Of a stretch of 64,000 nucleotides of DNA, positions 38,636 through 45,510 are shown piece by piece (the first letter of the stretch is position 1; every line of letters begins with the position of its first letter). Source of the DNA: Promicromonospora iranensis (GTDB taxonomy: Bacteria; Actinomycetota; Actinomycetes; Actinomycetales; Cellulomonadaceae). The notes beneath the pieces are model-generated. The model did no database searches. It worked only from the letters and a program-made list of their open reading frames with translations, and was not told where the DNA came from. Both the position numbers and the translations under genes were made by a program. Location of the stretch: NCBI RefSeq assembly GCF_028994805.1, contig NZ_JAJQQP010000001.1, forward strand, positions 62,001 through 126,000. Direction: 5' to 3'.

Positions 38636-40152
38636 GCACGTTCCTCGGCATGCCCGCCGCGCGCGACCGACGCGGACCCGGCCCCGACGCCGCCCCGGGG
38701 ACCCTGTCCGGCGTCGGGCGCCCGGAGGACCCGCTGCACTGGGGCGCCTCGTTCCCCGACGCGGCGAAGGCGGCGCTCGACAACGGCCAGCTGCGCCGCA
38801 ACCTGGGCAAGGCGACGTCGACCATCCGGACCAAGCGGGCCCGCGTGGTCGGCGAGGTGCCCGACTGGGAGGCGCTGCGCGACGCCGGGTCCGCCGTGAA
38901 GACGGACGTCATGGCACGCCTGCCCGAGCTGCTCGAGGAGCTCGAGCGCAACGTCACCGCCCGGGGCGGGGTGGTGCACTGGGCGCGGGACGCCGCCGAG
39001 GCCAACCGGATCGTCGCCGACCTCGTGCGCGCCCGGGACACCGACGAGGTGGTCAAGGTCAAGTCCATGGCCACCCAGGAGATCGGGCTCAACGAGGCGC
39101 TCGCCGAGGAGGGCATCGCGGCGGTCGAGACGGACCTGGCGGAGCTCATCGTGCAGCTCGCGGACGACATGCCGTCGCACATCCTGGTGCCGGCCATCCA
39201 CCGCAACCGCACCGAGATCCGCGACATCTTCCTGGAGCGGATGGCGGACGCCCCGCCGGACCTCACGGACGTGCCCCGCGAGCTCGCCATGGCGGCCCGC
39301 GCGCACCTGCGGCGCAAGTTCCTGTCGGCGAAGGTCGCGATCAGCGGCGCCAACTTCGCCGTCGCGGACACCGGGACGCTCGCCGTGGTGGAGTCGGAGG
39401 GCAACGGCCGGATGTGCCTCACCATGCCCGAGACCCTGATCACCGTCATGGGGATCGAGAAGCTGATCCCCACCTTCGACGACCTCGAGGTGTTCCTGCA
39501 GCTGCTGCCGCGCTCCTCGACGGGCGAGCGGATGAACCCGTACACGTCGATGTGGACGGGCGTGACGCCGGGCGACGGGCCGCAGGAGTTCCACCTGGTG
39601 CTGCTCGACAACGGCCGCACCAAGGTGCTCGCCGACGAGGCCGGGCGCGCGGCGCTGCACTGCATCCGCTGCTCGGCCTGCCTGAACGTCTGCCCCGTGT
39701 ACGAGCGGGTGGGCGGCCACGCATACGGCTCGGTCTACCCCGGCCCGATCGGCGCGATCCTCACGCCGCAGCTCACGGGCGAGGAGTCGGACCTGCCGTA
39801 CGCCTCGACGCTGTGCGGCGCGTGCTACGAGGTGTGCCCCGTCAAGATCGACATCCCGTCGATCCTCGTGGAGCTGCGCGCGCGCGAGGTGTCGATGACC
39901 GCGGGCTCCGCGGGAGACACCGCCGACCGGGTCTGGAGCGCGGCCATGAAGGCGGCGTCCTTCGCCATGGCCGACGGCGCACGGTTCCGCCGCGCCGCCC
40001 GGGTACCACGACTGCTGCGCGCCATCTCGCGCAACGGCGTCATCAGGAAGCTGCCGTTCCCCGGCTCGCTGTGGACCCGGTCCAGGGACCTGATGGAGCC
40101 GCCGAAGCAGACGTTCCGCGACTGGTGGGACGGACGAGAGGACCAGCGATGA
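38632..40152 (+). CDS. lutB: LutB-type iron-sulfur lactate utilisation protein
   Basis: A 506-residue protein. The N-terminal half is a LUD domain (KSMATQEIGLNEALAEEGI, ISGANFAVADTGTLAVVESEGN). The C-terminal half has two 4Fe-4S motifs, CIRCSACLNVCP and CGACYEVCPVKIDIP. It carries electrons within the LutABC lactate dehydrogenase complex in the cytosol. The ATG overlaps lutA and the TGA overlaps lutC, so all three are coupled. Length and motifs are standard. Confidence 0.93.
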   Translation: MSTFLGMPAARDRRGPGPDAAPGTLSGVGRPEDPLHWGASFPDAAKAALDNGQLRRNLGKATSTIRTKRARVVGEVPDWEALRDAGSAVKTDVMARLPELLEELERNVTARGGVVHWARDAAEANRIVADLVRARDTDEVVKVKSMATQEIGLNEALAEEGIAAVETDLAELIVQLADDMPSHILVPAIHRNRTEIRDIFLERMADAPPDLTDVPRELAMAARAHLRRKFLSAKVAISGANFAVADTGTLAVVESEGNGRMCLTMPETLITVMGIEKLIPTFDDLEVFLQLLPRSSTGERMNPYTSMWTGVTPGDGPQEFHLVLLDNGRTKVLADEAGRAALHCIRCSACLNVCPVYERVGGHAYGSVYPGPIGAILTPQLTGEESDLPYASTLCGACYEVCPVKIDIPSILVELRAREVSMTAGSAGDTADRVWSAAMKAASFAMADGARFRRAARVPRLLRAISRNGVIRKLPFPGSLWTRSRDLMEPPKQTFRDWWDGREDQR

Positions 40153-40922
40153 CCGACGCACGCACCGAGATCCTCTCGCGCATCCGCGGGGCGCTGGGCT
40201 CGGCCGACAGTTCGGCCGGGGCGGCGGGGACAACAGGCGCAGCGGGGACAGCCGGTGTGACGAGGGCCCCGTCGGTGGTGCCACGGGAGTACCGGTCCGC
40301 CGGTGAGCACGCCCCCGGCTCGGACGCCGTGCTGGAGGTGCTCATCGACCGGCTCGTGGACTACAAGGCCGAGGTGCACCGGACGACCCCGAAGGACCTC
40401 CCGCGCCTGCTGGCCAGGCTGATCCCGCAGCGGTCGGCAGAACGTCAGGTCGTCGGCAGCTCGGACTACCGATCACCTGACGTTCTGCCGACCACCCCGA
40501 GCACCCCGCGCGGCGCCGTCGTCGTGCCGCACGGGATCGACCAGGCCTGGGTTTCTGCCATGGGCGGGGTCGAGGTGCGGACCGACTCGCGCGAGGCCCC
40601 CCTCTCCGCCGCCGAGCTGGACGAGGTGGACGCCGTCGTGACCGCCGCGCGGGTGGCCGTCGCCGAGACCGGGACGATCGTGCTGGACGGCGAGGCCGAC
40701 CAGGGCCGGCGCGCCGTGTCCCTGGTTCCCGACGTGCACGTGTGCGTGGTCCGTACCGACCAGGTGGTGCAGACCGTCCCGGAGGCGGTCCGCCTGCTCG
40801 GCGCCGACCCGGAGCGACCCCTGACCTGGATCAGCGGCCCGAGCGCCACGAGCGACATCGAGCTCGAACGCGTCGAGGGCGTCCATGGCCCGCGAACGCT
40901 GCACGTGGTGCTTCTGTCCTGA
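40149..40922 (+). CDS. lutC: LutC-type LUD-domain protein carrying a palindromic insertion
   Basis: A 257-residue LUD protein. Its start is an ATG in a 4-bp overlap with lutB. The conserved part has VVVPHGIDQAWVSAMGG, VTAARVAVAETGTIVLDG, SLVPDVHVCVVRTDQVV and WISGPSATSDIELERVEGVHGP, as in LutC/YkgG. Residues about 95-116 (beginning RSAERQVVGSSDYRSP) come from a family A palindromic element (40432-40496). The element keeps the reading frame and falls in the loop before the core beta strand. An Ala/Gly/Thr repeat near residues 23-37 is also variable-looking. The protein is likely functional because the conserved blocks flank the insert intact. Confidence 0.9.
   Translation: MTDARTEILSRIRGALGSADSSAGAAGTTGAAGTAGVTRAPSVVPREYRSAGEHAPGSDAVLEVLIDRLVDYKAEVHRTTPKDLPRLLARLIPQRSAERQVVGSSDYRSPDVLPTTPSTPRGAVVVPHGIDQAWVSAMGGVEVRTDSREAPLSAAELDEVDAVVTAARVAVAETGTIVLDGEADQGRRAVSLVPDVHVCVVRTDQVVQTVPEAVRLLGADPERPLTWISGPSATSDIELERVEGVHGPRTLHVVLLS
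40432..40496 (+). repeat. Family A palindromic element inside lutC
   Basis: Left arm GGTCGGCAGAACGTCAGGT (40432-40450) and its exact complement (40475-40493) form a 19-bp stem around 24 nt that pair further. The left 27 bases match the intergenic copy at 44351-44377 in 26 positions. Here the element is read in frame as part of the LutC protein. Confidence 0.88.
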
Positions 40923-43132: not shown

Positions 43133-44338
43133 GTGATCCAGCGCAACGGCTTGCGTGTGCTCTCGCTGTACGAGGGCTTCTTCAGCGGCGGGGCTCGTGT
43201 CCTGCACTCGACGGTGGTCGCCGGTCTGCATCAAGGCGGTCGTCAGCAGCATTCCGTGCTGAGCCTGCACCACGAGGTCCGGCGTGAGGCCACCCTCCAG
43301 CGGATGGAGGACGACCCCCGGTACCGCGCCCTGCGCGCCGCGGGCGTCCGCATCGGCTCCCTCGGACGGAGCACCGAAGGGGAGCACGACTCGCACGTCT
43401 TCAGCGAGTCGGAGCTCGCGGCCGCCGTCCGACAGGCCGAGAGCTCCCACGTGGTGCTGTCGCTCAAGGAACAGCCGCTCCGGCTCGTGAACCAGGACGC
43501 CTTCCCCAGCCGCCCGGTCATCGCCTGCCTGCACCGCTCCGATCCCGAGCACCAGGGCGACGCTCTCGGCGACCTGCTGACCGCGGCCTCTCGCGGCCGG
43601 CTCGCCGCCGTCGTCTGCTGCGCGGAGTCGACGCGGGACGCATACCGCGAGGCCGGCGTGCCCGCGGACCTGCTCCGCGTGGTCCCGAACGGCATCAATC
43701 TCGCCCGGTTCCGCCCGGTCCAGGGCGCGCGCCGGCTCGCCCTGCGTGGCGCGGCCGGCGTACCCGGTGACGCAACGGTCGTCGTCTACGCCGCGCGGTA
43801 CGACGAGATGAAGAACCCCGAGCTCTTCCTCCGCTCGGCCCGCACGTTCCTCGAGCTGGAGCCCGACGGCCACGTCCTGATGTGCGGCGCCGGCATGACG
43901 GCGGCCAACCCCAGCCTGCAGGACGACCTCGCCCGCATCTTCGGCGACCGGCCGGACCTGCTGGAGCACCTCGACCTGCTGGGCGTGCGCCACGACATGG
44001 AGCTGATCTACGCGACGGCCGACGTCGTGGCCCTCACCTCGACGTTCGGCGAGGCCGCGCCGCTGTGCCTCATCGAGGGCTCGATGTGCGGGGCCGTGCC
44101 GGTCACCACCCCCGTGGGGGACGCGCCGTCGATCGTGGACCGCATCGGGTTCGTGACGTCGTTCGAGCCTGCCGAGATCGCGGCCACCTGGATCGAGGCG
44201 GCGGCCCGGCGTGGGGAGCTGGAGTCGGCGCGGACCGCCGTCCGGCCCCGGTTCAGCCACGTCCGGATGATCGCCGGCTACTCGACGATCATCGAGCGCA
44301 CCCACCGCGACGCGGGCCTCCGGCCGGCGCGCGTGTAG
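43133..44338 (+). CDS. GT4-type glycosyltransferase
   Basis: A 401-residue GT-B glycosyltransferase. The start is GTG 43133, eight bases after AGGAGG. N-terminal GLRVLSLYEGFFSGGARVLHST contains the Gly-rich acceptor loop. C-terminal VVVYAARYDEMKNPELFLRSA and FGEAAPLCLIEGSMCGAVPV hold the nucleotide-sugar site, with the E-x7-E-like element of GT4. No other envelope or polysaccharide genes are beside it, so donor and acceptor are unknown. It is followed by a long family A hairpin. Confidence 0.83.
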   Translation: MIQRNGLRVLSLYEGFFSGGARVLHSTVVAGLHQGGRQQHSVLSLHHEVRREATLQRMEDDPRYRALRAAGVRIGSLGRSTEGEHDSHVFSESELAAAVRQAESSHVVLSLKEQPLRLVNQDAFPSRPVIACLHRSDPEHQGDALGDLLTAASRGRLAAVVCCAESTRDAYREAGVPADLLRVVPNGINLARFRPVQGARRLALRGAAGVPGDATVVVYAARYDEMKNPELFLRSARTFLELEPDGHVLMCGAGMTAANPSLQDDLARIFGDRPDLLEHLDLLGVRHDMELIYATADVVALTSTFGEAAPLCLIEGSMCGAVPVTTPVGDAPSIVDRIGFVTSFEPAEIAATWIEAAARRGELESARTAVRPRFSHVRMIAGYSTIIERTHRDAGLRPARV

Positions 44339-44347
44339 CGCGGGCCT

Positions 44348-44415
44348 GGTGGTCGGCAGAACGTCAGGTGGTCGGCAATCCGGTTTGCCGACCACCTGAC
44401 GTTCTGCCGATCACC
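44348..44415. repeat. Family A palindromic element, intergenic copy (31-bp stem)
   Basis: Arms 44348-44378 and 44385-44415 pair with one mismatch across a 6-nt loop. The arm includes GGTCGGCAGAACGTCAGGT followed by a second GGTCGGCA. It lies between the glycosyltransferase and LacI genes and may serve as terminator. The near-identical element lies within lutC 3.9 kb away. Confidence 0.85.
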
Positions 44416-44460: not shown

Positions 44461-45510
44461 ATGTCCGACGGCCCCGTCACCCTCAGCCAGGTCGCCCGCG
44501 AAGCCGGCGTCTCGCTCGCGACGGCCTCGCGCGCGATCAACGGGAGCGCCACCCGCAGTGTCCGCGAGGACCTGCGCGAGCGCGTCCTGGAGACCGCGCG
44601 GCGCCTCGACTACTCGCCCGACCCCAGCGCCCAGGCCATGGCCCGCGGCCGCACCACGGCCCTGGGGCTCGTGGTGCACGACATCGCGGACCCGTACTTC
44701 TCCACCATCGCCGCCGGTGTCGCACGCGCCGCCGAGCACGAGGGCCTCATCGTCACGCTCGCCTCCACGGAGCACAGCCCCGAACGAGAGCTCGCCTTCG
44801 TCGAGCTGGCCCGGCGGCAGCGGTCGCGCGCGATCATCCTCGCGGGCGGTCGCCTCGCGCCGACCTCGGACGCGCTCGAGGCGGCCCTGAAAGCGTTCCG
44901 CGACGCCGGGGGCGGGGTGGCGCTGATCGGCCAGCCGGTCGACGACCTTCCCGTCGTCAAGGTCGCGAACGCCGACGGCGCCGCCGACCTCGCCCGCGCC
45001 CTGCACGGCCTGGGCTATCGCCGGTTCGCCGTCCTCGCCGGCCCGACGGGCCACCGCACGGCGGCCGACCGCACCGACGGTTTCACCGGGGCGTTGGCCG
45101 AGCTCGACAGCGCTCCCCCGCCTGACGACATCCTGACCTGCGCCTTCACCCGCGACGGCGGATACTCCGCGATGACCGCGCTGATCGGGCGGTCGGGCAC
45201 GAGTGCGCCGTCGGGCCGCGCAGGACACCTGCCCGAGCTCGTGTTCGCCGTCAACGACGTCATGGCGGTCGGCGCCATGGCCGCCGTCCGGGACGCGGGC
45301 CTGAGCGTGCCCGACGACGTCGCGGTGGCCGGGTTCGACGACATCCACACCCTGCGCGACGTCACGCCGGGCCTCACGACCGTACGGATCCCGCTCGCGG
45401 AGGTCGGGGCCCTGGCCACCGCCCTGGCGCTCGGGCGCTCGGGCCAGGCGGACGCGCGGGTACGCGGCGAGGTGGTGCTCCGGGAGTCGACGCCGGAGCG
45501 CACCCGCTAG
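44461..45510 (+). CDS. LacI-family transcriptional regulator
   Basis: A 349-residue repressor. The helix-turn-helix reads TLSQVAREAGVSLATASRAIN, followed by the hinge DYSPDPSAQAMARGRTTALG and a sensor domain ending VAGFDDIHTLRDVTPGLTTVRI. CAGGAT lies six bases before the ATG at 44461 and suggests a leaderless message. It precedes the Gfo/Idh-DUF993-isomerase operon, whose promoter carries GGGAAAGCGCATTCCC, the expected LacI-type box. A similar box lies before the Gfo/Idh gene at 32.2 kb. Probably a local repressor that responds to the sugar used by that operon. Confidence 0.9.
   Translation: MSDGPVTLSQVAREAGVSLATASRAINGSATRSVREDLRERVLETARRLDYSPDPSAQAMARGRTTALGLVVHDIADPYFSTIAAGVARAAEHEGLIVTLASTEHSPERELAFVELARRQRSRAIILAGGRLAPTSDALEAALKAFRDAGGGVALIGQPVDDLPVVKVANADGAADLARALHGLGYRRFAVLAGPTGHRTAADRTDGFTGALAELDSAPPPDDILTCAFTRDGGYSAMTALIGRSGTSAPSGRAGHLPELVFAVNDVMAVGAMAAVRDAGLSVPDDVAVAGFDDIHTLRDVTPGLTTVRIPLAEVGALATALALGRSGQADARVRGEVVLRESTPERTR

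What the first reader, a model, noticed from the sequence alone, without database searches (positions are those of the whole stretch)
40432..40496. Palindromic repeat element inserted in frame inside lutC
A 65-bp element with a 19-bp perfect stem lies in the lutC reading frame and encodes about 22 extra residues, just before the conserved core strand. An almost identical element (26 of 27 bases in the left arm) lies between genes at 44348-44415. This looks like a mobile palindromic element that tolerates insertion into coding DNA, reminiscent of Rickettsia palindromic elements, which I do not know to be described for this group.
Basis: partly seen in the sequence, partly recalled or inferred. 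Interest (0 to 1): 0.87.

Follow-up and report, generated by a model that had tools for sequence, protein, structure and literature searches.

The report
Palindromic repeats inside Promicromonospora genes
A soil actinomycete carries about 44 copies of a 62-base hairpin-forming repeat, mostly just after genes but sometimes spliced in frame into proteins such as LutC, where the DNA letters rather than the encoded amino acids seem to be what evolution preserves.

Summary
Window 40432-40493 is a 62-bp palindrome inside lutC; 44351-44412 is a second copy 12 bp after a stop codon. The genome, a Promicromonospora, holds 44 full copies; 13 of 13 genus genomes and 46 of 121 family genomes match. Most copies lie within about 50 bp of a gene's 3' end. 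The lutC insertion is absent from the six LutC aligned from outside the genus and present at one site in 7 of 12 Promicromonospora lutC genes, so it is old, not strain-specific. cydC and an mshB-like gene carry conserved in-frame copies too. A second genus has its own insertions in lutC and cydC at other sites. Inside genes pN/pS is near 1 while synonymous divergence is the lowest or nearly the lowest in the gene: conservation is at nucleotide, not peptide, level. No Y1 (RAYT-type) transposase was found in 13 of 13 genus genomes and no target duplication could be read. It works like a REP or Rickettsia palindromic element but fails tests for the tagged REP families. Mobilising agent and function are unknown; a strand test for an RNA role was not significant, and gene conversion among copies is not excluded.

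The parts
40432..40493 (.). 62-bp palindromic element inside lutC (LutC residues 95-115)
   Evidence: model R1 80-81 bits on both strands
40432..40450 (+). left outer arm, 19 bp, GGTCGGCAGAACGTCAGGT
40475..40493 (-). right outer arm, 19 bp, perfect complement of the left arm
40149..40922 (+). lutC (LUD domain protein, 257 aa) hosting the element in frame
   Evidence: Pfam LUD_dom E 1.6e-26
44351..44412 (.). second 62-bp element, intergenic, 12 bp after the stop of the upstream gene
43133..44338 (+). glycosyltransferase gene upstream of the second element
44461..45510 (+). LacI-family regulator gene downstream of the second element; its Antribacter relative carries an element inside the gene

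Best explanation
A family of dispersed, REP-like palindromic elements of Promicromonospora and related genera. Shown: each is a 62-bp near-perfect palindrome whose arms hold four TCGGYA-type boxes at a 19-bp spacing; most copies lie just after stop codons; some lie in frame in genes. Inferred: copies were spread in the past by an unknown trans-acting agent that is not a recognisable Y1/RAYT transposase. Insertions into promoters or essential folds were lost. Copies landing behind genes, or in frame in linkers, survived, helped by one reading frame that is free of stops on both strands in nearly all copies. After insertion the nucleotide sequence, not the peptide, stays constrained, inside genes too, either by sequence-specific recognition of the boxes and hairpin or by homogenisation among copies. 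In LutC it adds a poorly ordered stretch of about 21 residues that probably leaves the LUD fold intact.
For: 44 full copies in the own genome and 46 in P. iranensis; 13 of 13 genus genomes and 46 of 121 family genomes match. Context: own 21 tandem, 18 convergent, 2 divergent, 3 inside; P. iranensis 23, 17, 2, 3 and 1 unclassified. 36 of 39 (own) and 36 of 41 (P. iranensis) measured distances to the nearest gene 3' end are at most 52 bp, overlaps with the gene end included. Insertion in lutC 7 of 12, cydC 9 of 12 (one of them partly deleted), mshB-like gene 8 of 12 readable. Independent insertions at other sites: lutC and lacI in Antribacter soli, cydC in genome G014. Insert pS 0.111, 0.163, 0.190 against 0.358, 0.328, 0.371 in the rest of lutC, cydC, mshB-like gene, with pN/pS 0.89, 1.25, 0.95; 0 of 34, 0 of 106 and 1 of 49 overlapping 20-codon windows have as low a pS, and no window has as high a ratio. 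Arms covary: 1743 double-changed Watson-Crick pairs against a shuffle maximum of 770 in 40 intergenic copies drawn from 78; 12 of 96 changed pairs between 28 orthologous intergenic copies are Watson-Crick to Watson-Crick doubles. Frame 3 is open in 160 of 168 copy orientations (84 of 90 copies, those of exactly 62 bp), frame 1 in 56, frame 2 in 4, which can explain why the 23 intact in-gene copies of the three Promicromonospora genes use it. AlphaFold: no secondary structure at LutC residues 103-122, block pLDDT 50-53; a helix, 84-102, runs into the first residues of the insert.
Against: No transposase or mobilising gene was identified; Y1_Tnp absent in 13 of 13, and other transposases were not surveyed. 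No target duplication or precise empty site: of 10 unshared own copies 8 found matching P. iranensis sequence and 6 were aligned; one gave an indel that may be a collapsed palindrome, one an imprecise gap, the others no clean gap. Most copies are shared between sister species, so current activity is not shown. The RNA strand test (G-U against A-C mismatches on the sense strand) is not significant, 54 to 39, p = 0.15, and G014 goes the other way. The lutC copy differs at 1 position from a same-genome intergenic copy but at 3 from its sister orthologue, so homogenisation is not excluded. Insert pN is not low: 15 of 34, 5 of 106 and 12 of 49 windows are as high or higher. No covariation in the lutC copies. 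Against the share of gene pairs rather than spacer bases, divergent depletion is weak: p = 0.055, 0.037 and 0.39 for own, P. iranensis and G014.
Confidence: 0.78

Rival explanations
1. Dispersed functional sites: the palindrome is a binding site or mRNA 3'-end hairpin (terminator or stabiliser) kept by selection, and dispersal is secondary; in-gene copies serve the same role.
For: Tight 3'-end position, covariation of arms, boxes largely conserved across genera while the spacers differ, low pS inside genes.
Against: A run of four or more T within 15 bases of the hairpin on only 3 of 168 sides of 84 intergenic copies; no significant bias of G-U over A-C; sister species differ by about a quarter of copies; G001 and G011 have few matches.
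Confidence: 0.3
2. Peptide-level domestication: the element-encoded loop has become a useful part of LutC, CydC and the MshB-like protein.
For: The inserts persist in most species of the main clade in the same frame.
Against: pN/pS of 0.89-1.25 in inserts against 0.31-0.40 in the rest; absent or partly deleted in several species; frame choice explained by the stop-free frame; low-confidence stretch.
Confidence: 0.07
3. Low divergence inside genes comes from gene conversion between copies, not selection.
For: The own lutC copy is 1 change from intergenic copy C23:180744 and 3 from the P. iranensis lutC copy.
Against: 17 of 23 in-gene copies have a nearest neighbour among in-gene copies, ties included, in the same gene of another species. 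Intergenic copies of only two genomes were at hand for this comparison.
Confidence: 0.25
4. A native LutC loop or a chance palindrome.
For: None found.
Against: Absent at this site from 6 of 6 aligned LutC outside the genus; 44 genomic copies; shuffles.
Confidence: 0.01

Closest known systems
Rickettsia palindromic elements (RPE)
   Same: Dispersed palindromes found in frame inside unrelated protein genes and shared between species (passages of PMC10969869).
   Different: Different phylum; 62 bp rather than about 150 bp; only 3 of 44 own copies are in genes, against nearly half of the RPEs there; peptide not under detectable amino-acid selection here.
REP elements, GTAG and CGTC super-families (Di Nocera 2013, PMC3733652; abstract, two sections and a term search seen)
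   Same: Small palindromes, many copies, mostly between convergent or unidirectional genes close to 3' ends, intragenic copies in several species; CGTC REPs also lack a dedicated transposase.
   Different: No unpaired GTAG or CGTC tag; one 62-bp hairpin made of an iterated 19-bp unit instead of 20-40 bp units. The word start 'actinobact' occurs 0 times in that paper's main text.
REPIN/RAYT systems
   Same: Inverted repeat units forming a longer hairpin (recalled).
   Different: No Y1_Tnp in 13 of 13 genus genomes.
MITEs
   Same: Short inverted-repeat elements in many copies.
   Different: No target duplication could be read; no autonomous partner known, though none was searched for beyond PF01797.

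Membership tests
GTAG/CGTC-tagged REP | unpaired GTAG or CGTC tag at one end | tested here: not met
   symmetrical palindrome without an unpaired tag; CGTC occurs only inside the stem
GTAG/CGTC-tagged REP | 20-40 bp unit with its own small stem-loop | tested here: not met
   one continuous stem of about 28 pairs
GTAG/CGTC-tagged REP | located mainly between convergent or unidirectional genes near 3' ends | tested here: met
RAYT-mobilised REPIN | Y1 tyrosine transposase (PF01797) in the genome | tested here: not met
   0 of 13 genus genomes; the control found it in 5 of 14 well-known genomes; other genera not searched
Rickettsia palindromic element | in-frame insertion into unrelated protein genes | tested here: met
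Rickettsia palindromic element | sequence kinship with an RPE family | not tested
   RPE sequences were not fetched
MITE | target-site duplication | tested here: inconclusive
   no clean empty site among 6 alignments
MITE | autonomous partner with the same ends | not tested
   no genome-wide transposase survey; only PF01797 was searched

The most novel reading that the evidence does not exclude
The four phased TCGGYA boxes plus hairpin are a nucleotide-level signal read by an unknown protein in this actinobacterial family. Selection keeps that signal even inside open reading frames, and it has been placed repeatedly in the same genes (lutC and cydC, at different sites in two genera), so some in-gene copies are regulatory rather than tolerated junk.
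Probability: 0.22. Interest if true: 0.82.

Novelty: new variant of a known kind. Interest (0 to 1): 0.6.

Why it matters
It is a REP/RPE-like family in an actinobacterial group for which the rows listed by our literature searches (open-licence papers only, long lists cut at 20 rows) showed no description. The conserved in-frame copies give a clean setting to ask whether such elements are kept for the peptide, the RNA or the DNA; here the data speak against the peptide. Insertion into the same genes in two genera is unexplained and testable.

Tried and rejected
RAYT mobilisation: PF01797 searched in the own genome and the genus, none found. Chance hairpin: rejected. Native LutC loop: rejected. 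Known RNA family: 11 matches, none reaching its gathering score, most to animal microRNA hairpins. Carriage on plasmids or phages: no match for the second copy with flanks. T-run terminator: 3 of 168 sides. RNA-strand signature: suggestive in two related genomes (27:15 and 31:17), lost when other genera were added (54:39). Other candidate in-gene loci: ten of the listed candidates were fetched; two were the mshB-like gene again, one was a C-terminal read-through in another frame, and the seven others held only intergenic copies. Empty-site search for a target duplication: inconclusive. A possible redox/thiol theme of LutC, CydC and MshB was noted but not tested; of the further in-gene hosts in G014 and Antribacter (GH20, GH95, penicillin amidase, LysE, LacI, an amine-oxidase family protein) most do not share it.

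Full report
What is there. The window holds two copies of a 62-bp palindrome, 40432-40493 inside lutC and 44351-44412 between a glycosyltransferase gene and a lacI-type gene. The first copy has perfect 19-bp outer arms; the second is nearly perfect over about 28 pairs and, with flanks (82 nt), folds at -70.5 kcal/mol against a shuffle mean of -28.8. The three nearest named LutC loci are from Promicromonospora.

Copy number. The 19-mer with up to 3 mismatches gives 35 forward and 34 reverse matches in the own genome, reversed control 1 and 0. A covariance model built from 36 own copies gives 90 matches, both strands counted, that is 44 full copies and one partial; G002 has 46. All 13 genomes searched in the genus match, from 3 to 127 matches with both strands counted and only 150 candidates scored per genome. 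In the family 46 of 121 genomes and 11 of 25 genera match. Among 80 named lutC loci with flanks the model rings in 4, all in Promicromonospora or Antribacter.

Anatomy. Highest conservation among 78 intergenic copies of two genomes is at TCGG, GTCA and TCGG within each arm. The arm is a 19-bp unit plus the first 9 bases of a second one; 7 of the first 36 own copies carry a recognisable extra 19-bp unit on one side. In 17 copies from seven other genera the TCGGYA boxes are kept with some exceptions while the spacers differ; 16 of 17 have at least 23 of 28 Watson-Crick pairs, and the other, 60 bp long, was counted out of register.

Position. With a home-made codon-usage gene caller, own copies are 21 tandem, 18 convergent, 2 divergent and 3 inside genes; G002 copies are 23, 17, 2, 3 and 1 unclassified. 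For G014, another genus, 44 copies give 19 tandem, 15 convergent, 4 divergent, 5 inside and 1 unclassified; for Antribacter soli 12 copies give 3, 5, 0, 3 and 1 (partial matches in G014 and Antribacter were dropped). G014 is probably of the same genus as Antribacter: one search puts it in g3 with G038, whose size, match number and best E agree with G123. Divergent copies are far fewer than the share of spacer bases in the window predicts (2 of 41, p = 2e-6), but only marginally fewer than the share of gene pairs (p = 0.055).

In-gene copies. The lutC copy is at the same site in 7 of 12 Promicromonospora lutC genes (G006 gave no match) and absent there from 6 of 6 LutC aligned from outside the genus. 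G005 keeps what looks like the last bases of the right arm, suggesting loss by deletion. Two further in-frame copies, in cydC (TIGR02868, 516 bits, cut-off 329) and a PIG-L gene that resembles mshB below that family's cut-off (138 of 224 bits), are at conserved sites in 9 of 12 and 8 of 12 readable genes. Not counted: G003 for cydC (no orthologue found) and G012 for the mshB-like gene (read in two frames). The cydC copy of G006 is partly deleted. On a tree of four proteins the two species with the fewest matches, G001 and G011, lack all three inserts; some inner branches have low support. Antribacter soli has a copy in lutC covering residues 23-44, a different site, and one in a lacI gene within a 41-residue insertion. 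G014 has one in cydC between the membrane and ATPase parts, while the Promicromonospora site is empty there.

What is conserved. In the inserts pN/pS is 0.89 (lutC, 7 sequences), 1.25 (cydC, 8, G006 left out) and 0.95 (mshB-like, 8), against 0.31-0.40 in the rest of the genes; but pS itself is 0.11-0.19 against 0.33-0.37. In overlapping 20-codon windows 0 of 34 lutC, 0 of 106 cydC and 1 of 49 mshB-like windows had as low a pS, and none as high a ratio; pN itself is not low (15, 5 and 12 of these windows are as high). Variable positions inside genes match those between genes (Spearman 0.35, 0.61, 0.48). So the nucleotide sequence is constrained and the peptide is not. Pairs of sequences are not independent and numbers are small. 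Between own and G002 the intergenic elements differ at 5.2 of 62 positions on average (28 pairs; 3 pairs of unequal length dropped) against 163 of 809 fourfold sites of the three genes.

Hairpin. In a sample of 40 of the 78 intergenic copies double-changed Watson-Crick pairs far exceed shuffles (1743 against a maximum of 770). In genes covariation exceeds all 300 shuffles in cydC (39 against a maximum of 37), is reached by 11 of 300 in the mshB-like gene, and is absent in lutC. Pairing is lower in genes (77-84%) than between genes (87%). The test for an RNA role, G-U over A-C on the sense strand, was not significant when other genera were added, and T-runs follow only 3 of 168 sides.

Origin. 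At least 34 of 44 own copies have an orthologous copy in G002, and a 35th matches on one flank, so most are old. No Y1 transposase was found in 13 of 13 genus genomes, and the second window copy has no match in the plasmid or phage collections. No target duplication could be read. Dispersal is shown; the mechanism is inferred.

Why in frame. Frame 3 of the element is free of stops in 160 of 168 copy orientations, frame 1 in 56, frame 2 in 4. The 23 intact in-gene copies of lutC, cydC and the mshB-like gene use frame 3. In G014 and Antribacter other frames occur. This needs no selection on the peptide. AlphaFold places most of the LutC insert in a poorly ordered stretch before a core strand.

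Known work. I saw the abstract, the sections on CGTC families and on genome distribution, and a term search of PMC3733652: tagged REPs lie near gene 3' ends and intragenic REPs occur in several species. I saw passages of PMC10969869 on RPEs. In the rows listed, searches for a description in this group showed none; the library holds open-licence papers only. The element works like these but fails the tag and RAYT tests, so I file it as a new variant of a known kind.

Noticed in passing
window 40200-40275: LutC residues about 18-42 hold a G/A/T-rich linker expansion, longest in the own genome and P. iranensis among the aligned LutC, low pLDDT.
   Followed up: no
L025:2045-2106 (G000 C23:180744-180805): This intergenic copy, read on the other strand, differs from the lutC copy at one base, which hints at gene conversion or a recent common source.
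   Followed up: partly
L012, L024, L025, L028, L029, L035, L041: Some own copies carry an extra 19-bp unit on one side only, as if the arm grows by whole units.
   Followed up: no
L250:2145-2206 (G004): Copy near the C-terminal end of a gene, read in a different frame (GRQNARWSAPRNADHLTSYR) before the stop.
   Followed up: no
window 40149-40922; L026; L017: The three Promicromonospora host genes (LutC, CydC, MshB-like) all bear on redox or thiol metabolism; this may be chance.
   Followed up: no
L028:1984-2045 and L347: P. iranensis lacks this copy and keeps a short GC-rich remnant that looks like a collapsed palindrome.
   Followed up: partly
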